Part shown: one piece after another, positions 6,506 through 35,893 of the stretch
Position numbering within the stretch: position 1 is the stretch's first letter
Layout of the letters: each line of letters starts with the position of its first letter
Assembly (NCBI RefSeq): GCF_003667345.1
Contig: NZ_RCWF01000016.1
Coordinates: 1 to 52,307 of the forward strand
DNA: 52,307 nt
Source of the DNA: Poseidonibacter antarcticus
Lineage (GTDB): Bacteria; Campylobacterota; Campylobacteria; Campylobacterales; Arcobacteraceae
Direction of reading: 5' to 3'
Translations under genes and position numbers: made by a program
The notes under the pieces: generated by a model
The model's input: the letters and a program-made list of their open reading frames with translations, nothing else
The model's database searches: none
What the model was told of the DNA's origin: nothing

Positions 6506-6538
6506 TAGACAAAATATGTCTATTTTTTACATTATAAT
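6506..6538 (+). promoter_or_regulatory. Island promoter motif for the small-gene operon
   Basis: TAGACAAAATATGTCTA (6506-6522), 10 bases, TATAAT (6533-6538). This is the consensus form and drives the plus-strand operon starting at 6568. Confidence 0.85.
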
Positions 6539-14412: not shown

Positions 14413-14445
14413 AGTTTAACTTATAAGTGGGACATATTTTGACTA
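14413..14445 (-). promoter_or_regulatory. Island promoter motif for the 41-aa protein
   Basis: Gene-oriented: TAGTCAAAATATGTCCC (14429-14445), 10 bases, TAAACT (14413-14418). The motif includes the stop codon of the upstream receiver-HEPN gene. Confidence 0.7.
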
Positions 14446-16722
14446 GTTATATTCTTTTATCGTTTCAATCATTAATAATTTTGTATTAAACAACTCTTTA
14501 AGTTGCTGTGGTTTAATATGTACATCTTGTATATTTGAGTGTAGATAATTATTTCTATTTCTTATCATATTTTCAATATTTAAAGTATTTTTGCATCCTA
14601 GTTTTGTAAAAAGTTCTTCCAGCTTATCGTTTAAGCTAGTGGAATTTACATTAGTATTATCCCAAAACCTATCTGATTCATATCTCTGTTCTTTTATAAA
14701 GATACTATTGATTGCTTCAAAACTACTAATAATTGATAATAAGGCATATATGAATCTGTTGTCTAATTTACTATCAAGTATATCAAACACATATTGTGCT
14801 TCATTGTGAATTTTTATAGCAAACTTTATATAGTTTTTCTTTGATATATTGAATTTATGAAATATTTTACAATCAATCTCATCTTTTGGTAATGTGAAAT
14901 TTATATCTAGAATATTAATTACCTTTTGAGTTGTAGAATAAATCTCTATTAAGTATTTTCTTTCTAATCCTTCATCTACTAATCTTACAAACTTATTGAT
15001 ATTTTCCACTGTACTTATACTATTATCATCTGGATGTTCTTTTTTAATATATCCTAGTATCTTTTTTTCATACAGTTTTTCTAATATGGTACTTTTAGAA
15101 GTAGCTGTGAGCATTATCACTTGGATACCTGCATTTATTTCATGGATTTTTTCTAGTATTTTTATTCCTGTAAAACTATCTATATCTTTTTCATTATCAT
15201 GGTCATTTTTTGAAAGTCTTAAATCTAGTACTACAACATCTGGATTATACTCTTTTACTTTTTTTTGTATTTGCATATAAAGATTAAAAAGGGTTTTGTC
15301 TTTGTATTCATATTCAAAAGACTCAAACTCTAATCCATCTTTTTGAAGAGCAGCTTGTAAAATATCACTCCATCCTTTATCCCACTCATCATCTATAAGT
15401 AAAACTTTTCCATTTTTGCTAGGCTTTTTTATGCTTATATCTATCTGTTTATCTTTTTGGGCATAGTTTGCTTTGAGATATTTAAAATAAAGTGTATTTT
15501 CTATTTCTTCTTTATTTACATTTATTACTGCATTTTTTTGAATATTTAAAAACTCTGCCCATCTACTTATACTCCATTTATTAGCTATATCGTGAGTTCC
15601 TGAAGTGTCTTTTGGTGGGTTTACTTGGATTTTGTTTAAAAACTTATTATTGTATTTTTCTTCTGATAAGTTTTTTACATCAAGTTGTTGATATTTTTCT
15701 ATCTCTTCTTTTGTATTTTTACATAGATAAACATTTGGGGTAAATAGTATATTTGCCATATCATCAAATTTACAAAGCTGTTCAGTACTAAAATCACTCA
15801 CTATAACTATAGGAATATATCTTTTTATTCCAAGTTCACTAGAAAGTCTAATATGATAAGCAACTCTAAGACCTAAAAGTTCAAGATAGTTTGAAGAAAG
15901 ATTATCTTTGATAAAAATCATTTCAAAATCTTTCTCTTTTATCTCTAATAACATCTCGCTAATATACTTATCAATATCATTAGTGCTATTAAACTTTTCT
16001 ATACAATCAAACAGTTCAAAATCACAAATATTGTCATGGTGTATTATCAAAGAGTTGTTTTTATTAGCTTGTTTATCTTCAATCAAAAAGTAAGACTCTA
16101 AACTTTGTTTATAATTCTCTATCTCTTCAAGCGTCTTTTCATTGAGTGTATGAAACTGATAATTTACCTTGTTGATATTTCCATCTATTGTAAAATCGCT
16201 TGGGTTTATATTATAATTTTGGATATCAAATAAAAAAAGATTTACTTTTTCTAACACATTTGCTACTATATTTTCTTTCCAATGCTCACCATAACAAAGC
16301 ATCATAATATCATCATCTCTACTTCTTACAGCATCTAAAAACAGTGATAAATTTTTACTATAAAATGTTTTGGAGTTGAGCTCAAGATATTCAAACTCGC
16401 TTGTATCATAAAAGTTTGCAGATATCCCTCCTGAGAAGAATATAAGTGTTTTTTGTTCTTTTTTACAATACTCTTTGAGTCTAGTTACAATGATACTATT
16501 GCTATCATTATTTTCTTCTAGTTGTACTGATTTATGACAAATGATAATATCGTATTGAGATAGATTAAAACTATTATGGATCATCTCATTTGCAAGTTGA
16601 TAAAAATCATCTAAGATTATATTATCAAGTATATTTTTATATTGTTCAAAATCAAAGCTTAACTCGTTTTTAAAAAGCTCTTGTCTTTTGTATCTATCTT
16701 CTATTAGGAGTATTTTTTTCAT
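14443..16722 (-). CDS. Pseudo-receiver / receiver / HEPN protein (cluster A)
   Basis: 759 aa. Residues 1-~165: receiver-like fold starting LLIEDR, but the phosphoacceptor position reads CHKS (H63) and the later strand reads LIFFSGG, so it is degenerate. ~260-335: a conserved alpha/beta segment (IFIKDNLSSNYLELLGL..AYHIRLS). ~369-390: PPKDTSGTHDIANKWSI. 438-565: a canonical receiver with D444/D445, phosphoacceptor D500 in VVLDLRL, T539 and K560. 600-759: helical HEPN domain with R723-NNYL-H728. Receivers switch by aspartyl phosphorylation; HEPN Rx4H domains are usually metal-independent RNases. I infer a phosphorylation-gated RNase effector. The gene is the last large gene after the kinase-like protein and MNT gene, and starts inside the HepT-like stub (ATGA overlap). 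Confidence 0.78.
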   Translation of the reverse strand: MKKILLIEDRYKRQELFKNELSFDFEQYKNILDNIILDDFYQLANEMIHNSFNLSQYDIIICHKSVQLEENNDSNSIIVTRLKEYCKKEQKTLIFFSGGISANFYDTSEFEYLELNSKTFYSKNLSLFLDAVRSRDDDIMMLCYGEHWKENIVANVLEKVNLFLFDIQNYNINPSDFTIDGNINKVNYQFHTLNEKTLEEIENYKQSLESYFLIEDKQANKNNSLIIHHDNICDFELFDCIEKFNSTNDIDKYISEMLLEIKEKDFEMIFIKDNLSSNYLELLGLRVAYHIRLSSELGIKRYIPIVIVSDFSTEQLCKFDDMANILFTPNVYLCKNTKEEIEKYQQLDVKNLSEEKYNNKFLNKIQVNPPKDTSGTHDIANKWSISRWAEFLNIQKNAVINVNKEEIENTLYFKYLKANYAQKDKQIDISIKKPSKNGKVLLIDDEWDKGWSDILQAALQKDGLEFESFEYEYKDKTLFNLYMQIQKKVKEYNPDVVVLDLRLSKNDHDNEKDIDSFTGIKILEKIHEINAGIQVIMLTATSKSTILEKLYEKKILGYIKKEHPDDNSISTVENINKFVRLVDEGLERKYLIEIYSTTQKVINILDINFTLPKDEIDCKIFHKFNISKKNYIKFAIKIHNEAQYVFDILDSKLDNRFIYALLSIISSFEAINSIFIKEQRYESDRFWDNTNVNSTSLNDKLEELFTKLGCKNTLNIENMIRNRNNYLHSNIQDVHIKPQQLKELFNTKLLMIETIKEYN

Positions 16723-16838
16723 ATTTTCTTTTTATTCTCAAGTGCTTTTGTGATACTTCCAGTATTTTGAACTATTTGTTCAATATACTCTATTTTTTCA
16801 ATAATTAAATAGATTTTACTGATAGATTCTTTAGACAT
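16719..16838 (-). CDS. 39-aa HepT-like N-terminal stub
   Basis: A 39-codon frame (start 16838, stop 16719) overlaps the nucleotidyltransferase stop by 8 bases and the receiver-HEPN start by 4. Its sequence (YLIIEKIEYIEQIVQNTGSI) looks like the first helix of HepT/DUF86 HEPN toxins, which normally follow an MNT gene directly and are ~110-140 aa. It lacks the catalytic Rx4-6H region. I read it as the remaining N-terminus of a HepT gene whose rest was replaced by the receiver-HEPN gene. It may alternatively serve only to couple translation. Confidence 0.45.
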   Translation of the reverse strand: MSKESISKIYLIIEKIEYIEQIVQNTGSITKALENKKKI

Positions 16839-17148
16839 AAATTGCTCTATCTATTATAAATTTTTTTGCAGTTTTACCCATTCCTGAACTATCTGCAATA
16901 TCTACAGGTCTTTGAAAATATTCACTTAGTTCTTGCTTTATCTCTTCTAGTCTTGAGATTGCTTTAAAACCATATTTCATTGCAAAATCAGGTGTAGCTT
17001 CTACTAAAATATCTATATCACTATTTTCATCCGCTTCATCTCGTGAGTATGAACCAAAAAGTCCTTTTATATAAAAGCCTTCATTAGAATAGTTATTTTT
17101 TATCGTTTGAAGTTTTTCTAATATTTCACTTTTTTGTAAAATTGACAT
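16831..17148 (-). CDS. MntA-type minimal nucleotidyltransferase
   Basis: 105 aa. It has GSYSR (32-36), the acidic pair D44-I-D46 and the third acidic residue in VDIAD (D83), all of the polymerase-beta nucleotidyltransferase signature. MntA antitoxins neutralise HepT-type HEPN RNases by AMP transfer onto a tyrosine near the active site. Here the expected HepT is a stub and the next full gene has a HEPN domain, so the MNT may act on that protein. The order kinase-like, MNT, stub, receiver-HEPN with overlaps suggests one operon. Confidence 0.85.
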   Translation of the reverse strand: MSILQKSEILEKLQTIKNNYSNEGFYIKGLFGSYSRDEADENSDIDILVEATPDFAMKYGFKAISRLEEIKQELSEYFQRPVDIADSSGMGKTAKKFIIDRAIYV

Positions 17149-17187
17149 AGTAGTACCTTTAAATCGTATTGTTTTATTATACCAATT

Positions 17188-19662
17188 TTACTTATAAAAT
17201 CTCAAAATATGAGTAAATCCTTTTGGTTTTTCTTCTATTTCTATTATATCTTTGACATTGTTACTATATAAAAAGTTCACTCGAAAGTTTGTATCCTCGT
17301 ATCTCGATTCAATGCTATAATCACAAAGATTTTGAAGAGATGAAACTATATCAGCTATATCTCCTGCTTCTTTTGATCTTTGAAGAAGTTCATCAGCACT
17401 TCTACTACTTTTTGAGTCTATATGGGAGATTTTTATTTCTATTGATCTATCTTCTAGCTCTTTTGTAGTTACTTCTATATCTTTTAACTCTTCCCTTTTT
17501 TTAATCTCATCAAATATCTTACTAATAGCTTGAGAGAATTTAGATGTATCTGTATAAAACTGTCTATTTGATAGTTTTGCACTTGATAGGTCAAGATTGA
17601 TATTTTGAGATTTGAATATAGTTTCAAGATTGTTAAAATCAGCTCTTAGTTCTATCTCTTGTTTAAAAAGATTGATAATATCTCCAAAAGTTGATAAGTG
17701 CTTTCTAGGTGGAAGCATCACAGGTTTAGGAAGCTTAAAATCAAAAGGATTTTTCCCACTATCACAATGCTCTTTTAGTCCATCTAAGCTTGACCAACCT
17801 ATATTTATTTTAGCTTTACTACACCAGTTATATTCACTTGATGGCTCTTTTTCCATCAAAAAACAGTTTACTTTTTCATACAGATTTGGGCTAAGTATTT
17901 CAAGTTCAGTTTTCATACTCTCAAATTGTTTTTTAACCTGTTTCATATACCCATCAAAATTTCCATACTCTTTTTGTAACTCACCGAAATCCCATGTATG
18001 AGTTGTGTATTTGATTGGTTTATCTATAGTGAAGTTTGATAAAATTTTTACTAAATTTTGAGGAGTATTATTTTTAACTATATCAATATCATTTTTAATA
18101 TCTGTATTTAATGCTAAGTCATATGCAGTCATTTCACTTTTAACATTAATATCTGCACCTCTTTCAAGTAATGTCTTTACAAACATTCTGTTGCCTTCAA
18201 AAGAGTACTTCATAAGTGCAGTCATTCCCATATTATTTTTAGCATTTATATCTGTGCCATTATCTAAGAGAAGGTTAATTATTCTAATTGGTTTTATTAA
18301 ATCATGATTGTAATCTTCTTCAATTTTTTCATGTATTTCATCCCAGCAATCATTAGTATAATCAATGTATTGAAGGTCTACTTTTATATTCATAATCACA
18401 TTATTACCAAGCTTATCTTTATGATTTACATCAGCATCATTTTTTATTAAAATTTTTGCCACTTCAAAACCATTAGTTCTTTCTGTCGTATTCATTAAAA
18501 TACTTTTTCCTTTTTGATTAATAAAATTAACATCTGCTCCATTTTTAATAAGTAAAGAGACAATATTTAAGTTTACATCCGCTAAAAATTCACTTTCAAG
18601 ACCAGATTTTCTATAGAAAATATCTTCTTCAATCCTAAGTGAACAGGCTGACATCAATGGACTATCAAGGTTTAGATCAGCTCCATTTTGTATGAAATAA
18701 TTAATACAATTGAATATTTCATATTCATCTATTGTTCTTGCATTGCTTTTAGAACATACTATTGATAAAGGACTCATTTGAGATTTTTTAGCTTTCAACT
18801 TAGGGATATTAACATCGACTCCTGAATCAACAAGAAGTCTTATCATCTTAATATCTAGTTTTTTACATGCATTCACTAAATATTCTTCTTTTATAAAATT
18901 GCCTTTTTTAATAAGTAATTTTGCAAGTTTTAAATCACTTTCTTTACAAGCATAAAATAAAGCATTTCTATGTGAATCTGATATTTCTTTTGCTAAAAAT
19001 CTTTTTAAATTATCTATTCTGATTTTTTCATTAGGATTAAAACCATAATCAATTAACATTTTTATAATCTTAATATTTGAACACATCCCAAAAGAAGAAA
19101 CTTCAATATCTTTGATTTCTTTTATTTTAGTTTTAATGCCAAATTCACAATTAGGGTCTGTTTCCAGTATTTTTATTTTATATTTTGCTTTTTCAAATAT
19201 ATCAGCTCCTCTATCCTTTAATAATTTTATAGTATTTATATTATTCCCAACTACTGCAAACATAAAAGCAGTTAAACCTTGTTTTTTTGTTTGCACATTA
19301 ATATTACAACCTCTATCAAGTAATAATTTAACAATTTCATTATTACCAATTAAAGAAGCTATCATAAGTGAAGTAGGAGCTGTTGTCTCATCTTTGATTT
19401 TTTTTCTATCACTTGATTCATCTTTGAATTTAATTTTTATTCCAGATGATCTAGAAATTGTTTTGCATCCTTTAGAGTATATGTCTATATTATTTTTAAT
19501 AAGCTCCTTTATAAAGCTTACTTCAATAGAAATTTTTTTAATATATAATTTTATTAAGATATCAGTTAGTGAAATTTTAGATAAATCACCACCTTTTGAT
19601 AAAAATTTATTTAGTTCTTTAATATTTTGTGTTTTTACAATGTTTTTAAATTTAGTATTCAT
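17188..19662 (-). CDS. Ankyrin-repeat / degenerate kinase-like protein (cluster A)
   Basis: 824 aa. Residues ~90-530 hold about ten ankyrin-type repeats (for example NNEIVKLLLDRGCNINVQ). Residues 533-824 form a module shared with 33613-35067 and 35064-37991: (P)Q(N/S)LVKIL(S/T)NFT.DKP.K(Y/F)TTH.WDFGEL, SPNLYEKV, GWSS(L/M)DGLK, a strand-helix FYTDT.K....I..IF, and the end GFTHILRFY. Its order (helical hairpin, then D....L..VI..IF, alternating strands, final FTHILRF) is like a histidine kinase DHp/HATPase core, but I see no N-box asparagine or DxGxG glycines. I call it a degenerate kinase-like or adaptor module; the conserved TTH histidine is a candidate phospho-site. It is the first gene of its operon. 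Confidence 0.65.
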   Translation of the reverse strand: MNTKFKNIVKTQNIKELNKFLSKGGDLSKISLTDILIKLYIKKISIEVSFIKELIKNNIDIYSKGCKTISRSSGIKIKFKDESSDRKKIKDETTAPTSLMIASLIGNNEIVKLLLDRGCNINVQTKKQGLTAFMFAVVGNNINTIKLLKDRGADIFEKAKYKIKILETDPNCEFGIKTKIKEIKDIEVSSFGMCSNIKIIKMLIDYGFNPNEKIRIDNLKRFLAKEISDSHRNALFYACKESDLKLAKLLIKKGNFIKEEYLVNACKKLDIKMIRLLVDSGVDVNIPKLKAKKSQMSPLSIVCSKSNARTIDEYEIFNCINYFIQNGADLNLDSPLMSACSLRIEEDIFYRKSGLESEFLADVNLNIVSLLIKNGADVNFINQKGKSILMNTTERTNGFEVAKILIKNDADVNHKDKLGNNVIMNIKVDLQYIDYTNDCWDEIHEKIEEDYNHDLIKPIRIINLLLDNGTDINAKNNMGMTALMKYSFEGNRMFVKTLLERGADINVKSEMTAYDLALNTDIKNDIDIVKNNTPQNLVKILSNFTIDKPIKYTTHTWDFGELQKEYGNFDGYMKQVKKQFESMKTELEILSPNLYEKVNCFLMEKEPSSEYNWCSKAKINIGWSSLDGLKEHCDSGKNPFDFKLPKPVMLPPRKHLSTFGDIINLFKQEIELRADFNNLETIFKSQNINLDLSSAKLSNRQFYTDTSKFSQAISKIFDEIKKREELKDIEVTTKELEDRSIEIKISHIDSKSSRSADELLQRSKEAGDIADIVSSLQNLCDYSIESRYEDTNFRVNFLYSNNVKDIIEIEEKPKGFTHILRFYK

Positions 19663-22117: not shown

Positions 22118-22423
22118 ATGCTCACAATTTTAACAAAATACGAAATTTATAAATTTGAAAATGAATTACCAAATTTTAATTATCAAGAAAAAGTGTATTA
22201 TTTTAATATTCCAGAATCACTAATAGAAAATATTCAATACAATGATAATAAAATATTTATGATTTTGATATATGGATATATTAAAGCAACAAATAAATTT
22301 TATATACCAATACTTTCAGATGAAAATTTATTATTTCTTTCGAACAAATATAAGTATATAACTACTGATAACATTACAAAAAGAACTTTTTACAGATTTA
22401 CAAATCCAATCCCAACATACTAA
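22118..22423 (+). CDS. Tn3-family transposase N-terminal fragment (DUF4158-like)
   Basis: 101 aa. LTKYEIYKFENELPNFNYQEKVYYFNIPESLIENI ... FMILIYGYIKATNKFYIP follows the N-terminal pattern of some Tn3-family transposases (PP.F...ER..(Y/F)F.LP......(F/I)IL..GY(F/I)KA..KF). Full transposases are ~980 aa, so only the first tenth remains. The 3' end overlaps the convergent helicase gene by 26 bases. Its promoter looks intact, so the fragment could still be expressed. Confidence 0.6.
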   Translation: MLTILTKYEIYKFENELPNFNYQEKVYYFNIPESLIENIQYNDNKIFMILIYGYIKATNKFYIPILSDENLLFLSNKYKYITTDNITKRTFYRFTNPIPTY

Positions 22424-23813
22424 ACTGCTCATCTATGCTATTAAGTACATTGTCTTGATACTCACTTAATAGTGTATTCTTATTATCAGGTAGGAGTACT
22501 TTTACATCTTTTGAAGCTCTTGTAATTGCTACATATAGAAGCCGAAACATCATATCCTTGTCTCTCATGTTTTCTATCTCAGTTAGGTCTATATATACTG
22601 TTTCATAAGTACTTCCTTGAAGTTTATGAATAGTAGATGCAAAGATATATTTTACATCTATAAACATCTCCTTAATAGCATAAAATATCTTCCATTTTTG
22701 AGTTCTTAATCCATAGTCTTTTTCTTGTTTTGCTTCTTTTGCTATTTTGCTTAGTATCGTCTCAAATCTTCCTTTTGAGTTTGGATCTATAACTTTAAAA
22801 GGTCTCCCTGCTAAATCTTTACAGTCCCAAAACTCAACTTTTAGTTTTTTTTCAAAGATTTTAATAGTTGATGCGATTTCAACAATATCACTGTTTTGAT
22901 GTACAACCATACTATCTATTACATTTGCTTGTTGAAATATAACTTTGTCGCCTTTTTGAAGTATTTGGGGAGTTGATATACCTTGCTCTTGCCAGTATCT
23001 TTTTCTTATGGCTTTATTGTGTTGATCTACGCTATTATTTCTAAAACTTGCTATCACCTTATCATTTTTTGCCCATGTATCAGGTGTACAAAAATCGTCG
23101 TAAAATTCTTGTTTTGAGTTAATAAACTGCACTTTGTTTTTAAAACTTTCATCACTAAAAAACTCTTTTATTGAAATATATTGTTTTGATTTGATGATAT
23201 TTCTGGCTTTTGTAGCCATATTGATGATATAACTACCTTGTGCTTGTCTTACTATTTTGTCTAGTTTATATTTATGACTTATCTCAAAAACTTTGTTGTG
23301 TTGATTATCTACAGGAAGTAACTGAAACTCATCTCCTACATATAAAACAGCTTTTACTCTTAGTTTTTCTATAGCTTGGATTATATAAGCATAGATATCA
23401 GAACTTACCATTGAGCTTTCATCTACTATTAGAAGGTCTGTTTTTGTATCATCTTTATCTTTTGATTTAATTGGTTCAAACTTTTGTATTCCCTTATCAT
23501 AGTCTGTTACAAGTTTGATATTTAAAAAAGATTGAATAGTTTTTGTATCTACATTTTCAATCCCTTCTGTTAAAAGATTAGCTCTTAAAACTTGCAGGGC
23601 TTTATGTGTTGGAGCTGTGATTGTGATATGGAAAAATTCATCAAGTTTTTTTACTAGCTTTGTTGTTAAATATGTTTTACCAGTTCCAGCTGCACCACTA
23701 AGTGAGACTTCATTTTCCCAAACCATATTAGTTTTGATAATAGTATCAATTTTTTTTGCTATTTGTTCAAAGGCTTTGTTTTGTGTTGTTATTTGAGTTG
23801 ATGAAGTTTGCAT
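22398..23813 (-). CDS. Dda/RecD-like superfamily 1 DNA helicase
   Basis: 471 aa. Walker A GAAGTGKT (40-47), APTHKALQVL, TIQSFLN, Walker B DLLIVDESSM, GDEFQLLPV, and the C-terminal UvrD_C_2 block FASTIHKLQGSTYETVYIDL plus LYVAITRAS. This is the compact 5'-3' helicase type found in T4 Dda and in many mobile elements. It has its own consensus island promoter and lies just downstream of the reverse transcriptase gene (89-bp gap). Ribosome binding site AAAGGATTATAAAT. Confidence 0.9.
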   Translation of the reverse strand: MQTSSTQITTQNKAFEQIAKKIDTIIKTNMVWENEVSLSGAAGTGKTYLTTKLVKKLDEFFHITITAPTHKALQVLRANLLTEGIENVDTKTIQSFLNIKLVTDYDKGIQKFEPIKSKDKDDTKTDLLIVDESSMVSSDIYAYIIQAIEKLRVKAVLYVGDEFQLLPVDNQHNKVFEISHKYKLDKIVRQAQGSYIINMATKARNIIKSKQYISIKEFFSDESFKNKVQFINSKQEFYDDFCTPDTWAKNDKVIASFRNNSVDQHNKAIRKRYWQEQGISTPQILQKGDKVIFQQANVIDSMVVHQNSDIVEIASTIKIFEKKLKVEFWDCKDLAGRPFKVIDPNSKGRFETILSKIAKEAKQEKDYGLRTQKWKIFYAIKEMFIDVKYIFASTIHKLQGSTYETVYIDLTEIENMRDKDMMFRLLYVAITRASKDVKVLLPDNKNTLLSEYQDNVLNSIDEQFSMLGLDL

Positions 23814-23842
23814 ATTTATAATCCTTTTATTTTTATATTAGA

Positions 23843-23875
23843 ATTATACTTTACAAGATAGACATATTTTGTCTA
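23843..23875 (-). promoter_or_regulatory. Island promoter motif for the helicase gene
   Basis: Gene-oriented consensus TAGACAAAATATGTCTA (23859-23875), 10 bases, TATAAT (23843-23848). Here the palindrome extends to arms AGATAGACA/TGTCTATCT around 5 bases. Confidence 0.88.
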
Positions 23876-23902
23876 TCTTTTTTCTATTTTAGAAATAAAC
23901 TT

Positions 23903-25117
23903 TTAATAAAACTCAACATCATCTTTTAAATCGATTTCCAAAATAACAGGATTTATTTTATATAAACTAGAAGTTACTTTCATATACTTGCTATTTGGAT
24001 TTTTCATCTCAAAAATTGCTCTTGAAAATTTCTTTAATTTATTATATTTTAGATCATATTTATCACAATTTTTCTCTATAAAAGCATCAAGATTATAAAG
24101 AATGCTATGGTCGTTTAGATGACTAAAGAAATTTAACCAACCATATCTTTTGCCTTTTATTTCACAGCCTACTATTTTGAAGTTTACGCTTGTGTATAGC
24201 TGCTTTTTTGTACTTATTTTGTTTTGCTTATATTGTGTGAAAAGTTTATTTATATTTTGATAGAGTTTTTGTATAGAACTCTCTCTTACACTTACAATAT
24301 CACCATCAAAAACATATCCCAGAAAATCAAATTTACTTTGAATGTCTCCAAAAGATGACTTATTAGAGTCTTTTTTAAATGCATGCGTAGATAGCTTTAG
24401 TTTTGCAAAGTTGTTAGATACTCTTTTTGCAAGACCCTTAATATCTTTGTGCTTAGATAATATGAGTATATCATCTACAAATCTGTAGTACTTTATCTTT
24501 TTATTGTTAGTATATTTTTTATCTAATACTTCCAGATATATATCAGCAAGAATTCCAGATATAGACAAGCCTTGAGGAATTCCTATTTTGTTATTATATT
24601 TTACTCTTTGTTTTGAGGGTGTACTTATATCTACTGTTGTTTGGGTTATAGCTTTTTGTATAAGTTCTAATATTTTTTTATCTTTTATTTTTATTGCTAA
24701 AGTTTTCATTAGTATTGCATGGTTAATAGTTGGGAAAAATGTTTGTATATCTAGTTTTAAGTAGCTGCTGTACTGAGCTTTAGATTCTTTAATATCTTTT
24801 ATCATAGTTTTTATAGATGGTTTTTGAATTTTACTATCATAAAAAGTATCTAATAGATAACTTGAAAGGTATTTTAAAAGTAATTTATCTCTTAAAGTTG
24901 GTATAGATATTTCCCTAGTTTTATTTGTAGATTTTACTAAGAGCTTTTGTTTGTAGTATGAAAAATCATAGCTATCATTTGAAACTTTTCTTACTATTGT
25001 GTCTATTTCTTGAGTAAGATTTTTATCAAATGTATTTTTATCTGTTCCATCTATTCCAGCAGTTTGATAAGAGTTGAAATCTTTGTAAAGTACTTCTAGT
25101 TTTTCTTTTGATAGCAT
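23903..25117 (-). CDS. Reverse transcriptase (defence or retron-like)
   Basis: 404 aa, a stand-alone RT. It has AGIDGTDKNTF (19-29), SIPTLRDKLL, the catalytic block YLKLDIQTFFPTI (D123), IPQGLSISGILADIYL (180-195), YRFVDDI (D215/D216) and FDFLGYVF. There is no maturase or endonuclease domain, so it is not a complete group II intron protein. The retron NAxxH and VTG hallmarks are not obvious. The 5' leader holds a candidate structured RNA, as in retrons and several DRT-type anti-phage RTs. I cannot assign a class. Ribosome binding site AGAGGAAAACAA. Confidence 0.85.
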   Translation of the reverse strand: MLSKEKLEVLYKDFNSYQTAGIDGTDKNTFDKNLTQEIDTIVRKVSNDSYDFSYYKQKLLVKSTNKTREISIPTLRDKLLLKYLSSYLLDTFYDSKIQKPSIKTMIKDIKESKAQYSSYLKLDIQTFFPTINHAILMKTLAIKIKDKKILELIQKAITQTTVDISTPSKQRVKYNNKIGIPQGLSISGILADIYLEVLDKKYTNNKKIKYYRFVDDILILSKHKDIKGLAKRVSNNFAKLKLSTHAFKKDSNKSSFGDIQSKFDFLGYVFDGDIVSVRESSIQKLYQNINKLFTQYKQNKISTKKQLYTSVNFKIVGCEIKGKRYGWLNFFSHLNDHSILYNLDAFIEKNCDKYDLKYNKLKKFSRAIFEMKNPNSKYMKVTSSLYKINPVILEIDLKDDVEFY

Positions 25118-25142
25118 TTGTTTTCCTCTTTATTATTTTATG

Positions 25143-25262
25143 CAAGTAGCCTGTTTTATCTATCATCACCCTACACTAAAGTAGAATCTATTTTAAAAAT
25201 GTTTGTGTTTACCTTTGTATTACTACAAAAATCTACTACTATAAAAGTAGTAAGGCTACTTG
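25143..25262 (-). ncRNA. Candidate structured RNA upstream of the reverse transcriptase
   Basis: Read on the minus strand, the predicted transcript starts near 25262, about 7 bases after the TATAAT at 25270-25275. It begins CAAGTAGCC (25262-25254) and contains perfectly complementary GGCTACTTG at 25151-25143. Inside are a hairpin with stem TACTAC/GTAGTA (25234-25252) and a shorter CTAC/GTAG hairpin (25171-25184). Pairing of 5' and 3' ends around hairpins immediately before an RT start is the layout of retron and some DRT RNAs. I infer an RT template or primer RNA. Confidence 0.5.
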
Positions 25263-25269
25263 TGAAATG

Positions 25270-25302
25270 ATTATACTTTTTAATATAGTCATATTTTGTC
25301 CT
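25270..25302 (-). promoter_or_regulatory. Island promoter motif for the RNA/RT unit
   Basis: Gene-oriented: AGGACAAAATATGACTA (25286-25302), 10 bases, TATAAT (25270-25275). The RT ATG is 169 bases from the motif, far more than the usual 43-67, which leaves room for the leader RNA. Confidence 0.75.
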
Positions 25303-25322
25303 TTTAATATATTTACTTGTGA

Positions 25323-25457
25323 GTTGATAATATGAAAATGCTAGGAAATAAATCTGAAGAGTATGAACAAGAATATAAAAAACCATATGAGTCCAAAAGT
25401 GATATTGAGAATAAAGCACCAAACTTAGATGAGATTCCTGATAAAATTCCATTTTAG
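25323..25457 (+). pseudogene. ssb: C-terminal scrap of a single-stranded DNA-binding protein gene
   Basis: The frame reads VDNMKMLGNKSEEYEQEYKK ... APNLDEIPDKIPF. The MLG(N/S)K segment after the OB-fold and the acidic DEIP-D-IPF tip are SSB hallmarks. A TGA directly upstream and the absence of the OB-fold show that only the tail remains. An ATG at 25332 could still give a 41-aa peptide carrying the SSB tip. Confidence 0.65.
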
Positions 25458-25558: not shown

Positions 25559-26182
25559 TTATAAATGCTCTTTTGTGAGCACTTTAAACTCAACTCTTCG
25601 TGATCTTAGTTCATCTTGGCTAGTTTTATTTTCATCTTGATATAAAAGATTTGAAGAACTCATTCCATTAGCTCGAAGTTTTTTTTGAAGCCATTTTATA
25701 TTTGAAGATATGATGCTATCTTCAAGATTATAACAATATGTTAAAACATTACTTGCTCTTTTTTGAGATAGATTCATATTATATATATACGATTGTTTTT
25801 GGCTAGCTTCTCCCCAACCATTTGAGGTGTGTCCCTCTACTCTAATCTCTGCTATTTCTTTAAAAAATTGCCGTCCTGATAATAGTTTTATATATCTTGG
25901 GAAAAACTCATTTAAGATATTTTCAAAACTTTGAGGAATCTCATCACTTCCCATAGAAAAGGGAGAATCAAATCGTATAATATTATCCTTCGTAATGATA
26001 GCTTTCCACTCTTCTAAATCTTTGTCAAACTCTTTATGAAGTGCTTTGTTTAACTGTACTTTATATATTTCTTTTTCATTTAGAATTTGATATAAAAATG
26101 CAATAGCTATAAACATAAATATCATCATCAAAGCAGACATCACATCAGCAATATTTATCCAAGAAGTGTCATTTTCTTTCAC
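25559..26182 (-). CDS. ZorB/MotB-like OmpA-domain stator protein
   Basis: 207 aa, GTG start at 26182 (AGGAG upstream; overlaps the previous stop as TAGTG). One N-terminal transmembrane helix with the conserved acidic residue in SWINIADVMSALMMIFMFIAIAF (D13, equivalent to the MotB/ZorB proton-path aspartate). The periplasmic part is OmpA-like: IAEIRVEGHTSNGWGEASQ ... NLSQKRASNVLTYC ... ELRSRRVEFKV. It pairs with the ZorA-like gene to form a proton-driven stator-type complex, as in Zorya anti-phage systems. Confidence 0.8.
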   Translation of the reverse strand: MKENDTSWINIADVMSALMMIFMFIAIAFLYQILNEKEIYKVQLNKALHKEFDKDLEEWKAIITKDNIIRFDSPFSMGSDEIPQSFENILNEFFPRYIKLLSGRQFFKEIAEIRVEGHTSNGWGEASQKQSYIYNMNLSQKRASNVLTYCYNLEDSIISSNIKWLQKKLRANGMSSSNLLYQDENKTSQDELRSRRVEFKVLTKEHL

Positions 26183-26820
26183 TATAGTCTCCTATTTGCT
26201 TCTCTTAAAAGCAGTTGCATCTGCTCTTTGACTATTGAAGTAGATTGTTCTAGGGAGTTTTTTACTTCATTACTTGAACTAGAGAGGTTTAAGATAAGCT
26301 CTTCAATAGCTTTTTTCTCTTTGTCTTTTACTATCTCTACCTTTTCAAGTTGAGATAAAATATTTTCAAGATTCTTTTCACTTCTTGATATATGCGTTTT
26401 ATAACCCTCTTGCCATAAAATCATATTCTTTACAGCCTCATTTAACTGCTTGAAGTTGTCTCCAAATTGTTCTGTAAGGTTATGATTAAACTCTGTTACT
26501 ACAATCTCAAGGGCTTGCATTGTTTCACTTTTACTATCATGTTTTATAGGCTTAAATATAGAAAGTATTATAGAGAAGAATATCCCAACACCACTTGTTA
26601 TAAATGCAGTTTTAAGACCATTTAAAAGGTGGGGCATACTTGTCTTTATATCTGTTACATCAAAATGAAAAAGCCCTATAGCAATACCTACAAAAGTACC
26701 TAGAACTCCTAAAGATACTATTTCATTTTTATAGTTTCGTTTACTTTTTTTTTGAATACTTAGTGCAAATAGTACTAATATCCAAGATGTAATTCCTACT
26801 GTTATCATTGTATTGTTCAT
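26182..26820 (-). CDS. ZorA/MotA/ExbB-like proton channel protein
   Basis: 212 aa. Membrane helices at ~5-22, ~35-50 (VSLGVLGTFVGIAIGLFHF) and ~70-90 (LKTAFITSGVGIFFSIILSIF) carry the MotA/TolQ/ExbB core pattern LLNGLKTAFITSGVG. The cytoplasmic tail (~100-212) is a coiled coil. Zorya ZorA proteins usually have a much longer tail (700 aa or so in total), so this is a short-tail version. Confidence 0.75.
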   Translation of the reverse strand: MNNTMITVGITSWILVLFALSIQKKSKRNYKNEIVSLGVLGTFVGIAIGLFHFDVTDIKTSMPHLLNGLKTAFITSGVGIFFSIILSIFKPIKHDSKSETMQALEIVVTEFNHNLTEQFGDNFKQLNEAVKNMILWQEGYKTHISRSEKNLENILSQLEKVEIVKDKEKKAIEELILNLSSSSNEVKNSLEQSTSIVKEQMQLLLREANRRL

Positions 26821-26837
26821 GATTTTTCCTTTTTTAA

Positions 26838-27416
26838 TTACTTATGTGCATAAATAGCATCGAATTTTTTTACTTGAGCGTTGTATTTACTTACTACTAA
26901 TTTGTGGCTTAGTCTATATTTATAAGCTAGATGATTTGTATTGTAGTTTTGTAGTTCACTTAGCATAGAGCGAAATTCATTGAGTAATTTCCCATATTCT
27001 ATAAAGTTTACTATCATCTCCCCATCATTGATTTTAGTTCGTATTTGTTTGTGGATTTCATTTGTCTTTTCAAGGTTTGATAAAAGAAGTTTTTCATCAT
27101 CTTTTAAATCTTCTTCTTTTCTCTCCACTCCAAATATAGTTTTGTTTAAAAACTTTGAAAGAAATAATCCAATACCAAAAAACACTACCCCAAGAATAAA
27201 GCCACCTGAGTAAAGCCCAAAAAATGACAATAACCCTGTAAAGATATATACAAAAATAGAAGCGATGATGATACTTGCTATTTTTTCTTCCACATTTTTA
27301 CCACTTCCAGTTTGCAAAATATTATTTTTTATATCTTTTGAGCTGCTTATTAGTTTTAGTGTCCATAGCTTATATTCATCTAGAAGTTTATCTAGCAATA
27401 AAATTTGCGACATCAT
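26838..27416 (-). CDS. Membrane protein of the ZorAB-like operon
   Basis: 192 aa. A short helical N-terminus, then a hydrophobic double span (IASIIIASIFVYIFTGLLSFFGLYSGGFILGVVFFGIGLFL, ~47-87), then a long charged coiled coil with KLLLSNLEKTNEIHKQIRTKIN. Family not recognised. The start follows the 82-aa gene's stop directly (TAG ATG ATG). It probably belongs to the same complex as the ZorA/ZorB-like pair. Confidence 0.6.
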   Translation of the reverse strand: MMSQILLLDKLLDEYKLWTLKLISSSKDIKNNILQTGSGKNVEEKIASIIIASIFVYIFTGLLSFFGLYSGGFILGVVFFGIGLFLSKFLNKTIFGVERKEEDLKDDEKLLLSNLEKTNEIHKQIRTKINDGEMIVNFIEYGKLLNEFRSMLSELQNYNTNHLAYKYRLSHKLVVSKYNAQVKKFDAIYAHK

Positions 27417-27691: not shown

Positions 27692-27724
27692 ATTATAGAT
27701 AAAATATTAGACATATCTTGTCTA
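27692..27724 (-). promoter_or_regulatory. Island promoter motif for the ZorAB-like operon
   Basis: Gene-oriented: TAGACAAGATATGTCTA (27708-27724), 10 bases, TATAAT (27692-27697). Confidence 0.85.
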
Positions 27725-29181: not shown

Positions 29182-29214
29182 ATAATATAGTTTTTAATAG
29201 ACATATCTTGTCTA
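29182..29214 (-). promoter_or_regulatory. Island promoter motif for the M16 peptidase
   Basis: Gene-oriented: TAGACAAGATATGTCTA (29198-29214), 10 bases, TATTAT (29182-29187). The palindrome extends to 13-base perfect arms TTTTTAATAGACA/TGTCTATTAAAAA (29191-29203, 29209-29221). Confidence 0.88.
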
Positions 29215-31342: not shown

Positions 31343-31375
31343 AGTATATCTTATATTTTAGACATATTTTGTCTC
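31343..31375 (-). promoter_or_regulatory. Island promoter motif for the 44-aa protein
   Basis: Gene-oriented: GAGACAAAATATGTCTA (31359-31375), 10 bases, TATACT (31343-31348). It overlaps the first base of the receiver-HEPN stop codon. Confidence 0.78.
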
Positions 31376-32961
31376 TATTTGTGATTAAACATATTTTGTA
31401 AGTTTTCTAAAACATTAGTTACATTATAAGTTCTAATTTTTGGTGGGTTATCTATTATTTGTATCATTTTTTCAAGTTTCTTAAACCATTTAACAATTTC
31501 TTTATCAGTGACAAGTATATTTCTTCTTGAGTGAAGATAATCATTTCTTTTGTCGATTAACTTTTTCATATCAAGATTATCCTTTGTACCAAATTTCTCA
31601 AATAGTTTAACAATTCTACATCTTAATGCATTATACTGGCAATCATATGGTTCTTTATCCCAAAATGTCATTTCTTTTTCATTTATAAATATACTTAATA
31701 TTGTTTCTAAACTACTTGCAATTGAAACCATTGCATAAATAAACTTATTCTGACTATTATTATCTAAAATATCAAAAATATTTTGTGTTTCTTTTTCTAA
31801 TTTAATCCAGAATGATTCATATTTTTCTATAGAAATATTGTATTTATTAAATATATCTTCATCTAGAATCATTTTTATATTCACAGTAATGTCATAAATA
31901 GATTTTAGATATTTTCTATCTAGCCCCTTATCAATCAAACTTACTAACTTGTTAATATTCTCTATTGTATCAATATTTTTATCATCAGGATGTTCTTTTT
32001 TAATATATCCTAATATCTTTTTCTCATAAAGTCTTTCCAATATAGTACTCTTACTTGTTGCAGTAAGCATTATCACCTGAATACCTGCATTTATTTGATG
32101 TATTTTTTGAAGTATTCTAATTCCAGTATAATCATCTATATTTTCAGTTTCATGATCTCCTTGGGCAAGTCTTAGATCCAAAATTACTACATCAGGATTA
32201 AAACTTACAACTTTTTTTTGTATTTGCATCAAAAGATTAAATTTTGTTTTATCTTTAAAATCATAATCAAAATAATCAAAGTTTATACTCTCACTTTTAG
32301 TTATTGAAGTTAAGACATCAGCCCAACCTTTATTCCATTCGTCATCAATGAGTAAAACTTTACCTTCTTTAGTAGCAGATAGAATTTCAATATTTTCATG
32401 TACTTTGTTATTATTTAAAACTTTTAGATATTTAAAATAAAGTGTATTTTCAATCTGGTTTTTATTTTTATTAATTACATCACTTTCTATAGATAGAAGG
32501 TTTGACCATTTATATATACTCCATTTATTTGCAATATCATGATTTCCTGAGGTATCTTTAGGGCGTTCAATTATAATTTTATCTAAAAACTCATTTTTAA
32601 AATTAGTATTATTTAATTTCATATATTTACTTGGTAAATTATTTACAAATATACTTTTAGTAAAAAGTATTTTAGCAAATGAAGTTATTTTATTTAATGT
32701 AAAACCATCCAAGTCACTTATTATAACAATTGGTACAAATTTTTTATATCCTAATTCTGTAGAAAGACGTATATGATAAGCTAATAATAAACCTGTAAAC
32801 TCCATATAGTTTGTTGTCAAACGGTCTTTTATATAAATGATATCAAATTCTTTTTCTTTTATCTCATTCAGAATATTCTTAATTTTTGAAAACTTTAGAT
32901 TTACATCATAAGTATCTATTTTAGATACATTATTATTATGTATAAGTAGTTTTTTATTCAT
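31375..32961 (-). CDS. Receiver-HEPN protein (cluster B)
   Basis: 528 aa, equivalent to residues ~225-759 of the cluster A protein. 35-105: IIYIKDRLTTNYMEFTGL..AYHIRLS segment. 132-150: ERPKDTSGNHDIANKWSI. 200-326: canonical receiver with D206/D207, phosphoacceptor D262 (VILDLRL), T300 and K321. 355-500: HEPN with R472-NDYL-H477. It starts 8 bases inside the 220-aa gene, so the fused protein of cluster A is here two coupled genes. Predicted RNase output of the system (inference). Confidence 0.78.
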   Translation of the reverse strand: MNKKLLIHNNNVSKIDTYDVNLKFSKIKNILNEIKEKEFDIIYIKDRLTTNYMEFTGLLLAYHIRLSTELGYKKFVPIVIISDLDGFTLNKITSFAKILFTKSIFVNNLPSKYMKLNNTNFKNEFLDKIIIERPKDTSGNHDIANKWSIYKWSNLLSIESDVINKNKNQIENTLYFKYLKVLNNNKVHENIEILSATKEGKVLLIDDEWNKGWADVLTSITKSESINFDYFDYDFKDKTKFNLLMQIQKKVVSFNPDVVILDLRLAQGDHETENIDDYTGIRILQKIHQINAGIQVIMLTATSKSTILERLYEKKILGYIKKEHPDDKNIDTIENINKLVSLIDKGLDRKYLKSIYDITVNIKMILDEDIFNKYNISIEKYESFWIKLEKETQNIFDILDNNSQNKFIYAMVSIASSLETILSIFINEKEMTFWDKEPYDCQYNALRCRIVKLFEKFGTKDNLDMKKLIDKRNDYLHSRRNILVTDKEIVKWFKKLEKMIQIIDNPPKIRTYNVTNVLENLQNMFNHK

Positions 32962-33616
32962 CTGCTAACTCTTTGACAACATTTATTATGCTATCTCTTA
33001 GTTTAAGTATCTCTGTTAAATAAACCCAGTTGTTTTCTATCTTCATTTCATAAAACTTTTTGTCAAGACCAAGTATTAAATTAATTTTAGTTTTATTAGC
33101 AAAATCATCATAATCTATGTCTTCATCAGCATTATTATCTATAAAGATATTCACATTTTCCAATATATTTAATATAATATTTAACTTCCATTGTTTACCA
33201 AAACTTAATATCCTAATATTAATACTATCCTGTCTTAAATCTTCCAAAAATAATATTAAATTTTTACTATAAAAATCCTCTGAACTCAAATGTAATAATT
33301 CATAATCCTCACGGCTATATGATGTTTCATTTCCACCTGAAAACAGTACTAAAGACTTTTTATTTTTTTTACAATAACTCTGAAGTTTTCCTAAAATCAC
33401 TCTATCTTCATTTATAAAAATAGATTGATGTGCAATAACTACTTCATATATGTTTAAATCAAAATCATCTTTTTTAATCTTTAACATAAAGTTTGTAAAA
33501 TCTGAATCTATCTTATTATCTAAAACATCACTATATGTTTCTAAATCTATATTTGCTGACTCTAAAAAATCTTTTTGTCGCTTCGGTCTATCTTCTATTA
33601 ACAATACTTTTTTCAT
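32954..33616 (-). CDS. Stand-alone pseudo-receiver (cluster B)
   Basis: 220 aa, matching residues 1-~215 of the cluster A fusion: LLIEDR start, the phosphoacceptor aspartate replaced by histidine (VVIAHQS, H63, same position as in cluster A), LVLFSGG, and SEDFYSKNLILFLEDLR. The retained histidine in two diverged copies suggests it matters. The gene is coupled by ATGA to the kinase-like gene upstream and overlaps the receiver-HEPN gene downstream. Confidence 0.7.
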   Translation of the reverse strand: MKKVLLIEDRPKRQKDFLESANIDLETYSDVLDNKIDSDFTNFMLKIKKDDFDLNIYEVVIAHQSIFINEDRVILGKLQSYCKKNKKSLVLFSGGNETSYSREDYELLHLSSEDFYSKNLILFLEDLRQDSINIRILSFGKQWKLNIILNILENVNIFIDNNADEDIDYDDFANKTKINLILGLDKKFYEMKIENNWVYLTEILKLRDSIINVVKELADE

Positions 33617-34442
33617 TTGTTATAAAACCTTAATATATGTGTAAAACCGTTTGGTTTATAATTTAATTCTTCTATATTTTGAGAAGTATTACTTGTTAAA
33701 TAATTTACTCTATAGTTTTTATCTTCATAACTACTCTCAATACTCCAGTCACAAAGGTTATTTAAATTTTCTTTGATACCAGCAAAATCTCCATTCTGTA
33801 CTTCTTCTAGCATAACATAAGCATCACTTCCTGCTTGTGCTCCTAATTGCATAATTTTTAATTCAATAAATTCTTTTGTTGAATCTCCTAATACCTCTAC
33901 TATTATATTTGTATATTCATGACGTTCCACCTCATGCATTTGTGAAAAAATAGTTTTTATTACATTAATTAATTTCTCAGTATCAGTATAAAATGTAACA
34001 CCTTTTAATTTTATCAATTCTACTTTATATTTTCTACCTAATTTTTTTCTCTCTTGAATAAAAATATCTTCAAGCATTGTATCTTTACGAATTTCAATCT
34101 TTCGCTTGAAGACATTTACTATTTCTTTAAAATCTTTAAAATCAAAAGGTTTATTTCCTGCATTACACCAATTTTTTAATCCATCCATTGAGGACCAACC
34201 TAAAGCTTCTGTTGAATCTGTTTCCCATAAGAAATTATAAACTTCTTTATATAGATTAGGAGATAGTGTTTTTAAATCATCTTTAATCGCTAACCATTGT
34301 GTTTTAACTTCAGCCATATATCCATCAAAATTTTTATAGTCACTTTTTGACAATTCTCCAAAATCCCAATCATGTGTTGTAAATTTCATTGGTTTATCTT
34401 CTGTGAAGTTTGTAAGTATTTTTACTAATGATTGAGGATTGT
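33608..34442. repeat. 835-bp direct repeat, copy 1
   Basis: Covers the kinase-like module of the 484-aa gene and its stop. It is identical to 35059-35893 except for two bases in the SNTS(QN/ET)IEEL codons, with no gaps (constant offset 1451). Confidence 0.9.
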
Positions 34443-35067
34443 TTGAAAGAAAAATATTTTTTTCTTTTTTTAAATTTGGTTGTAGTTTTCTTACATAAAT
34501 CAATGCAAAATATACTAACAACATAAAAATTAAACTTCCTTGACTTCTCATATAAATTTGATTTGATATATACCAGTCAAATGTTTCATCAATATTTGAT
34601 TCTTCTATATGTTTTATTATATCTGTAATCGAAAATGTTATCGATCGAAATACACTCATTGGAATATTAGGAGTAGAATGTTTTGCAACATAAAAATTAT
34701 AATCATATTCTTTTAAAGTTCTTAAATACTCTGGTATAATTACTAATTCTCTATTTTGATGCCTTGGCTTTGTTTTATTATAATTTATTAATAATTCATT
34801 GTCTTTAATAACCTTAACAATTCCATCTGGTTTTATATAATTTAAGTCTTTTTTTATTTCTTCAATACATAAAATATTATCAGTATGGTTATCTAAACAT
34901 TTTTTCAAGCCAAGACTTAAATTCTTAGTCAATAATTTTATTTCAATAGAATCAGAAATTTTTTTAGAATTGTAATATGAATAATTACGAATAAAAGATA
35001 ATATTAAGACTACCATTAAAAATATCATCCAAAATACAAACTTATTGTTTAAATTTATTTTTTTCAT
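33613..35067 (-). CDS. Membrane sensor / degenerate kinase-like protein (cluster B)
   Basis: 484 aa. Transmembrane helices at ~11-26 (FVFWMIFLMVVLILSF) and ~178-193 (LIFMLLVYFALIYVRK) enclose a ~150-residue periplasmic domain with two cysteines (C57, C67), the layout of a classical sensor kinase. The cytoplasmic ~275 residues are the same module as in the ankyrin proteins, here virtually identical to that of the neighbouring 975-aa protein. It lacks recognisable N-box and glycine motifs. Coupled to both neighbours by ATGA. It probably brings an envelope signal to the same receiver. Confidence 0.68.
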   Translation of the reverse strand: MKKINLNNKFVFWMIFLMVVLILSFIRNYSYYNSKKISDSIEIKLLTKNLSLGLKKCLDNHTDNILCIEEIKKDLNYIKPDGIVKVIKDNELLINYNKTKPRHQNRELVIIPEYLRTLKEYDYNFYVAKHSTPNIPMSVFRSITFSITDIIKHIEESNIDETFDWYISNQIYMRSQGSLIFMLLVYFALIYVRKLQPNLKKEKNIFLSNNPQSLVKILTNFTEDKPMKFTTHDWDFGELSKSDYKNFDGYMAEVKTQWLAIKDDLKTLSPNLYKEVYNFLWETDSTEALGWSSMDGLKNWCNAGNKPFDFKDFKEIVNVFKRKIEIRKDTMLEDIFIQERKKLGRKYKVELIKLKGVTFYTDTEKLINVIKTIFSQMHEVERHEYTNIIVEVLGDSTKEFIELKIMQLGAQAGSDAYVMLEEVQNGDFAGIKENLNNLCDWSIESSYEDKNYRVNYLTSNTSQNIEELNYKPNGFTHILRFYNK

Positions 35068-35893
35068 TTGTTATAAAACCTTAATATATGTGTAAAACCG
35101 TTTGGTTTATAATTTAATTCTTCTATAGTTTCAGAAGTATTACTTGTTAAATAATTTACTCTATAGTTTTTATCTTCATAACTACTCTCAATACTCCAGT
35201 CACAAAGGTTATTTAAATTTTCTTTGATACCAGCAAAATCTCCATTCTGTACTTCTTCTAGCATAACATAAGCATCACTTCCTGCTTGTGCTCCTAATTG
35301 CATAATTTTTAATTCAATAAATTCTTTTGTTGAATCTCCTAATACCTCTACTATTATATTTGTATATTCATGACGTTCCACCTCATGCATTTGTGAAAAA
35401 ATAGTTTTTATTACATTAATTAATTTCTCAGTATCAGTATAAAATGTAACACCTTTTAATTTTATCAATTCTACTTTATATTTTCTACCTAATTTTTTTC
35501 TCTCTTGAATAAAAATATCTTCAAGCATTGTATCTTTACGAATTTCAATCTTTCGCTTGAAGACATTTACTATTTCTTTAAAATCTTTAAAATCAAAAGG
35601 TTTATTTCCTGCATTACACCAATTTTTTAATCCATCCATTGAGGACCAACCTAAAGCTTCTGTTGAATCTGTTTCCCATAAGAAATTATAAACTTCTTTA
35701 TATAGATTAGGAGATAGTGTTTTTAAATCATCTTTAATCGCTAACCATTGTGTTTTAACTTCAGCCATATATCCATCAAAATTTTTATAGTCACTTTTTG
35801 ACAATTCTCCAAAATCCCAATCATGTGTTGTAAATTTCATTGGTTTATCTTCTGTGAAGTTTGTAAGTATTTTTACTAATGATTGAGGATTGT
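35059..35893. repeat. 835-bp direct repeat, copy 2
   Basis: Partner of 33608-34442. It encodes the C-terminal module of the ankyrin protein. Near-identity ends abruptly at the border with the ankyrin region, pointing to recent duplication or gene conversion. Confidence 0.9.

What the first reader, a model, noticed from the sequence alone, without database searches (positions are those of the whole stretch)
22398..25302. Reverse transcriptase with a leader RNA whose ends pair, next to a Dda-like helicase
The RT promoter is 169 bases from its ATG. The leader would start with CAAGTAGCC and contain the perfect complement GGCTACTTG ~110 bases later, enclosing hairpins. That is the geometry of retron and some DRT RNAs, yet the RT does not show clear retron hallmarks and carries AGIDG and FVDD motifs. 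The adjacent helicase is a separate unit with the same promoter type. This could be an undescribed RT defence type.
Basis: partly seen in the sequence, partly recalled or inferred. Interest (0 to 1): 0.72.

Follow-up and report, generated by a model that had tools for sequence, protein, structure and literature searches.

The report
Telomerase-like defence RT without its SLATT partner
A bacterial reverse transcriptase and the small structured RNA in front of it belong to a recently described antiviral, telomerase-like family, but to a lineage that has lost the membrane protein thought to be required, which offers a natural way to ask what the repeated DNA itself does.

Summary
A leader RNA (25143-25262, minus strand) lies 25 nt before the RT start. 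Its ends pair, and it encloses hairpins more regularly than 1000 of 1000 shuffles and 570 of 570 window tiles. The RT (23903-25117, minus) is not a new class: it is UG17, the RT of the DRT10 defence system (preprint PMC12632851: ncRNA + SLATT membrane protein + RT, telomerase-like tandem-repeat ssDNA). The departure is that no SLATT gene is present. I found six such loci in Campylobacterota and one gammaproteobacterial MAG. The five intact RTs form one clade (99/97) beside a SLATT-bearing Sulfurimonas system. All six keep the leader directly before the RT and end in D[VI][ED]FY, a candidate C-terminal priming tyrosine. All 19 other UG17 loci examined carry SLATT_5. SLATT_5 is absent from the three whole genomes tested, with a positive control. 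Most likely it is a two-part, DRT10-like ncRNA-RT that makes protein-linked short-repeat ssDNA and acts without SLATT. The window's template repeat is not statistically distinctive (p 0.38), and function is untested. The Dda-like helicase is a separate unit. It shares with most island operons a palindromic site at a fixed 11 nt from a TATAAT box.

The parts
25287..25302 (-). 16-bp near-palindrome AGGACAAAATATGACT (3 mismatches to TAGACAAAATATGTCT), putative operator or activator site of the leader promoter
   Evidence: 21 such sites in the window vs 2.6 expected; 11-nt spacing to TATAAT
25270..25275 (-). TATAAT -10 box of the leader promoter (predicted)
   Evidence: sequence; same spacing at 14 of 21 sites with at least 5 of 6 TATAAT matches; no standard -35
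25143..25262 (-). leader ncRNA (120 nt as delimited by the closing stem)
   Evidence: fold z -4.6; descriptor 0/1000 shuffles, 0/570 tiles; same architecture in relatives
25253..25262 (-). closing stem P0, 5' arm CAAGTAGCCT
25234..25252 (-). hairpin SL1
   Evidence: stem varies with pairing kept
25211..25232 (-). hairpin SL2
25168..25187 (-). hairpin placed like SL5 (template boundary) of DRT10
25153..25167 (-). candidate template loop GATGATAGATAAAAC; best direct repeat GATA x2 (predicted cDNA repeat TATC), not statistically distinctive
   Evidence: p 0.38
25143..25152 (-). closing stem P0, 3' arm AGGCTACTTG
23903..25117 (-). UG17 (DRT10-type) reverse transcriptase, 404 aa, ends DDVEFY
   Evidence: PADLOC RT_UG17 E 1.2e-116; tree
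22398..23813 (-). Dda-like SF1B helicase; neighbouring but separate unit with its own site at 23860-23875

Best explanation
This is a two-part, SLATT-less relative of DRT10: a UG17 reverse transcriptase with its own leader ncRNA. The leader is transcribed from the island promoter, folds into a closed stem carrying SL1, SL2 and an SL5-like hairpin, and presents a short single-stranded template loop just 3' of the last hairpin. By analogy with DRT10 (inferred, not shown here) the RT binds this RNA, primes on a hydroxyl at its own C-terminus (here the terminal tyrosine of D[VI][ED]FY), copies the short template again and again, and makes protein-linked short-repeat ssDNA. DRT10 as described needs a SLATT membrane protein. 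This lineage lost it, most simply once, so the ssDNA would have to act in another way, most simply as in DRT9, where ssDNA is kept low by a host exonuclease and its accumulation upon infection harms the cell. Shown here: family, clade, absence of SLATT, conserved leader architecture, conserved C-terminal Tyr, defence-island setting. Inferred: RNA binding, priming, repeat synthesis, antiphage action, mode of action.
For: UG17 model 388 bits; apart from the generic RT model (142 bits) the next family model is UG4 at 108 bits. Tree of 26 RTs: 5 of 5 intact SLATT-less rows form one clade (99/97), sister to the SLATT-bearing Sulfurimonas RT (100/99), inside SLATT-bearing UG17. SLATT_5 in 16 of 16 other UG17 loci tested by Pfam; an own HMM finds SLATT in the other three, L049, L050 and L052. 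SLATT_5 absent from whole genomes G000, G090 and G479, present in G436. Leader directly before the RT in 6 of 6; descriptor reached by 0, 3, 0, 0, 0 and 1 of 1000 shuffles. DNA similarity between window and L066 covers RT plus leader plus promoter (23895-25311) and none of the window's genes adjacent to that stretch. C-terminal D[VI][ED]FY in 6 of 6. AlphaFold model pTM 0.81; DRT9 and DRT2 among the best PDB matches after group II intron and G2L4 RTs.
Against: No RNA, cDNA or phage data. The A-B-A' repeat is not distinctive in the window (p 0.38), L084 (1.0) or L085 (0.96); only L002, L043 and L083 reach p 0.02-0.03, and the same test has no power on SLATT-bearing controls (Fisher p 0.93, n=12). 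The window leader lacks SL3/SL4, hairpins of DRT10 whose scrambling reduced activity in the preprint. A covariance model of Vibrio-type DRT10 ncRNAs found several other SLATT-bearing ncRNAs but not the window, L002 or L043 leader. The model's last three residues have pLDDT under 50, so the priming position is not supported structurally.
Confidence: 0.7

Rival explanations
1. Ordinary DRT10 whose SLATT-like partner is supplied in trans or by a neighbouring membrane protein (the 2TM protein 26838-27416 or the ZorA/ZorB-like pair 25559-26820).
For: The three genes lie directly upstream on the same strand; ZorA/ZorB are membrane proteins, and the 192-aa protein looks like a two-helix membrane protein by eye.
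Against: No SLATT hit up to E 1 for these proteins; SLATT_5 absent genome-wide in three genomes; no such pair seen beside the RT in the ORF lists of L043, L066, L083, L084, L085; the SLATT-less rows fall on one supported branch.
Confidence: 0.13
2. A decaying or inactive DRT10 remnant: after SLATT loss the RT-ncRNA is drifting.
For: L085 RT is split in two frames; the window leader is reduced.
Against: 5 of 6 RTs are intact, with the same C-terminal end, although L002 and L043 are only 49% and 45% identical to the window; leader pairing is kept although sequence changes (21 of 31 shared pair positions change on both sides).
Confidence: 0.1
3. A group II intron-like or other RT with an incidental leader.
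For: Best PDB fold and profile matches are group II intron RTs; TIGR04416 145 bits.
Against: Below the TIGR04416 cut-off of 300; no maturase or HNH domain; no Rfam match at gathering score; UG17 388 bits; leader architecture conserved.
Confidence: 0.02

Closest known systems
DRT10 (UG17 RT + SLATT + ncRNA; preprint PMC12632851)
   Same: RT family; ncRNA with long closing stem, hairpins, an SL5-like hairpin before a loop; C-terminal hydroxyl residue (Tyr, as proposed for Eco1); defence-island setting
   Different: no SLATT gene; ncRNA directly before the RT; RT tail shorter in window and L002; SL3/SL4 missing in window and L002; short or unclear template repeats
DRT9 (UG28; PMC12483538)
   Same: RT plus upstream ncRNA, SLATT only occasional; L043 has a seven-U loop like a homopolymer template
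   Different: DRT9 model far weaker than UG17 (2.5e-16 against 1.2e-116); window template is not poly-U
Retrons
   Same: short structured RNA with paired ends upstream of an RT
   Different: no retron RT family among the hits listed; RT is UG17; no msr/msd was sought
Telomerase (TERT/TR)
   Same: proposed repeat copying of a short template inside an RNA (through DRT10, by the preprint)
   Different: distant; not compared here

Membership tests
DRT10 | UG17 reverse transcriptase | tested here: met
   PADLOC RT_UG17 E 1.2e-116; inside UG17 rows of the tree
DRT10 | adjacent SLATT gene | tested here: not met
   no SLATT_5 in the genome or in the 52-kb window by own HMM
DRT10 | ncRNA with closing stem, hairpins and an SL5 hairpin before the template loop | tested here: met
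   descriptor, 0/1000 shuffles; but SL3/SL4 absent in the window, and covariance model R1 does not match it
DRT10 | A-B-A' repeat in the template loop | tested here: inconclusive
   GATA x2, p 0.38
DRT10 | C-terminal Ser or Tyr primer | tested here: met
   terminal Tyr in 6 of 6 clade members; function not tested
DRT10 | tandem-repeat cDNA and phage defence | not testable with these tools
   needs sequencing and plaque assays
Group II intron RT | maturase domain and intron RNA | tested here: not met
DRT9 | UG28 RT with poly-U template | tested here: not met
   template GATGATAGATAAAAC
Retron | retron RT | tested here: not met
   no retron RT family among the hits listed (one search lists 25 of 42)
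Retron | msr/msd RNA | not tested
   no retron RNA was sought beyond the Rfam scans

The most novel reading that the evidence does not exclude
A SLATT-free branch of the telomerase-like RTs rewired from a membrane effector to ssDNA handling: short-repeat ssDNA works through single-strand DNA-binding proteins (own or phage SSB). SSB genes lie within about 1.2 kb of the leader-RT unit in 3 of 6 SLATT-less loci and in 0 of 19 SLATT-bearing ones, and an SSB-like C-terminal remnant abuts the window's leader promoter.
Probability: 0.15. Interest if true: 0.8.

Novelty: new variant of a known kind. Interest (0 to 1): 0.6.

Why it matters
DRT10 defence is reported to require SLATT, and how its repeat DNA acts is stated to be unknown (PMC12632851). 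A natural clade that kept RNA and RT but lost SLATT separates the two and makes the question testable. It is also a minimal telomerase-like RNP (120-nt RNA, 404-aa RT).

Tried and rejected
Retron and group II intron readings: rejected by models and domains. Known RNA family for the leader: none in Rfam (the only hit with E<1 is a snoRNA at 0.98 outside the leader). MAFFT alignments of the ncRNAs were poor, so the covariation count rests on helices lined up by hand from their ends, with four sequences (window, L002, L043, L027). The covariance model R1 from five Vibrio-type ncRNAs found L021 (E 0.002), L054 (0.17) and, with filters off, L023 (0.025), L027 (0.044), L053 (0.26) and L029 (0.58) at the predicted places, but not the ncRNAs of L025, L051, L056, L002 or L043, nor the window's; it also gave reverse-strand hits on its own training loci. 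The window was searched with default filters only. A second model was not built. Viral-contig scans gave one close SLATT-bearing relative (L029) and no SLATT-less one; phages gave one weak hit. Genome searches are samples: matches in 2 of 104 genomes of the family (includes G000), 3 of 397 of the phylum (includes G000; one SLATT-bearing, one other RT), 2 of 398 of the order (includes G000), 2 of 369, 1 of 195, 4 of 228. The genome-contig scan used two short patterns and gave 17 loci; L047 (same contig range type and scores as L046), L058 and L059 were not studied. L085 was left out of the tree because its RT is split. In the tree the outgroups are RTs of unnamed type, several SLATT-bearing rows are long branches, and L049, L050, L003 and L057 were not included.

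Helicase as partner of the RT: rejected as a fixed partner. Its 69-76% orthologues in G006, G090 and G059 sit without the RT next to them, although a 41% relative lies 1 kb before the leader in L083.

Full report
Observation. The RT (23903-25117, minus) and helicase (22398-23813, minus) are real ORFs. The leader 25143-25262 has a 10-bp perfect closing stem and three hairpins, z -4.6. A descriptor for closing stem, two stacked hairpins, third hairpin and loop scores 70.0; 0 of 1000 shuffles and none of 570 window tiles reach it. A TATAAT box places the RNA start at the first base of the stem (inferred from the sequence; no standard -35).

Identity of the RT. PADLOC names RT_UG17 at E 1.2e-116, 388 bits; apart from the generic RT model (142 bits) the next family model is UG4 at 108 bits. 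UG17 is the RT of DRT10 (PMC12632851; abstract, Results, Discussion and part 1 of the figure legends read). There, ncRNA, SLATT protein and RT are all required for defence; the RNA templates tandem-repeat ssDNA through an A-B-A' pattern next to hairpin SL5, primed on a C-terminal serine (or, likely, a tyrosine in Eco1).

The departure. No SLATT gene is present. The leader stands directly before the RT. A relative in the same taxonomic family (L002/L066, 49% identical) and a gammaproteobacterial MAG (L043, 45%) show the same, and a search of the family of G436 added L083, L084 and the frame-split L085. By contrast SLATT_5 is found in 16 of 16 other UG17 loci tested by Pfam, and an own HMM finds it in L049, L050 and L052 and in none of the six SLATT-less loci above a stray 14.7-bit hit in L084. 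SLATT_5 is absent from the whole genomes G000, G090 and G479 and present in G436 as control. G479 is a MAG, so its absence is weaker; the genomes of L083-L085 were not searched whole.

Phylogeny. With 26 RTs the five intact SLATT-less rows form one clade (99/97), sister to the SLATT-bearing Sulfurimonas RT (100/99), within SLATT-bearing UG17. One loss of SLATT is the simplest reading. with three SLATT-less rows agreed (98/96).

RNA conservation. The same element order is found in SLATT-less leaders and upstream of SLATT in other UG17 loci (16 loci, 3 of them SLATT-less; L023 12 of 100, L025 2 of 100, L051 2 of 100 and L021 1 of 100 shuffles reach the observed score, the rest 0 of 100; for L054 and L023 the descriptor chose a frame that differs from the one). 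For the six SLATT-less leaders 0, 3, 0, 0, 0 and 1 of 1000 shuffles reach it. In four hand-aligned leaders 31 pair positions are shared and 21 change on both sides with pairing kept. MAFFT could not align them, and the covariance model R1 did not recognise the window, L002 or L043 leaders. The window and L002 lack room for SL3 and SL4 (22-23 nt between SL2 and the SL5-like hairpin).

Template. Best direct repeats: window GATA x2 (p 0.38), L002 CAAAG x2 (0.03), L043 seven T (0.03), L083 ACAAAC x2 (0.02), L084 none (1.0), L085 none (0.96); Fisher 0.02 for six, against 0.93 for 12 SLATT-bearing controls, so the test has little power. This part is suggestive only.

Priming. The six end in DDVEFY, DDIEFY, EDIEFY, EDVDFY, DDIEFY and NDVEFY. 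Of 18 SLATT-bearing UG17 rows 11 end in S and 4 in Y, the others in G or R. The model's C-terminus is unreliable.

Unit. DNA similarity between window and L066 runs 23895-25311, that is RT, leader and promoter, and none of the window's adjacent genes; the only other match is a gene at window 5508-6255, 18 kb away, whose relative lies just downstream of the RT in L066. The helicase is a separate unit.

Literature on SLATT loss. A 2021 survey reports SLATT_5 beside 81-82% of UG17 RTs in complete and 76% in draft genomes (PMC8934634, passages), so UG17 without a neighbouring SLATT has been counted, but I found no description of such a lineage. Searches. The UG/Abi survey (recalled; not held) and the supplements of PMC12632851 were not available. 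DRT9 has SLATT only occasionally, and its poly-dA is kept down by ExoI; sbcB was reported essential with UG17 (PMC12483538, passages).

Mechanism. See Best explanation. The step from ssDNA to defence without SLATT is the least certain one; I give a DRT9-like action of the DNA itself about one half, given that the system is active.

Setting. The window is a dense defence island: DarT/NADAR, TmtA-like, DrmD-like, HipA, ZorA/ZorB-like, conflict histidine kinases, WYL.

Noticed in passing
window, 21 sites, e.g. 6506-6521, 23860-23875, 25287-25302, 27709-27724, 29199-29214: A 16-bp near-palindrome TAGACAAAATATGTCT precedes most operons of this defence island: 21 sites with at most 3 mismatches vs 2.6 expected. 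13 of the 16 matches (at most 2 mismatches) in the 2.92-Mb genome lie in this 52-kb window. 14 of 21 have a TATAAT-like box at exactly 11 nt, other spacings at most 2. This looks like an island-wide regulon or cassette promoter.
   Followed up: partly
L077 (G006), L083 (G1319), L084 (G1311), L085 4072: The same site recurs in other Campylobacterota defence islands: 7 vs 0.94 expected in L077, 9 vs 0.30 in L083 and in L084, 3 vs 0.45 in L085, in front of the RT leader in L083, L084 and L085; none in L043 and 1 in SLATT-bearing L044.
   Followed up: partly
L084 4434-4943, L083 4749-5220, L043 6573-7007: SSB genes near the SLATT-less RT: 3 of 6 loci vs 0 of 19 SLATT-bearing loci (Fisher p 0.009; Pfam). 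L083 and L084 are close relatives, several controls are near copies, and locus lengths differ, so the p is too optimistic.
   Followed up: partly
window 25332-25457 (+): 41-aa ORF MKMLGNK...PDKIPF, divergent to the leader promoter, resembles the C-terminal tail of SSB (blastp-short E 1e-4 to L083 SSB in a 3-sequence comparison; no Pfam hit): possible SSB remnant.
   Followed up: partly
L084 1786-4350; L083 2949-4451; L043 1631-3796; L085 4158-5408: Helicase or exonuclease genes next to the SLATT-less RT: PIF1-like plus ExoX-like, Dda-like (41% to the window helicase), DinG-like (name recalled; Pfam Helicase_C_2), DnaB_C fused to LRR.
   Followed up: partly
L084 6493-7275; L066 11189-11968; L083 8008-8790; window 5632-6255: A related protein of about 260 aa starting M-K-K-[IL]-I-A-T-H-N-K-like lies one to three genes downstream of the RT in L084, L066 and L083, and a relative lies in the window 18 kb away: a recurrent island cassette.
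   Followed up: no
window 25559-27416 (-): ZorB2-like protein (PADLOC 3.7e-68), a short 212-aa ZorA-like protein and a 192-aa protein of unknown family: a possible reduced Zorya-like unit.
   Followed up: no
window 14443-19662 and 31375-37991 (-): Two related blocks of ankyrin-HisKin-conflict, iREC and response-regulator proteins, a repeated two-component-like conflict module.
   Followed up: no
L085 2645-3882 (-): UG17 RT split in two overlapping frames: frameshift or sequencing error.
   Followed up: no
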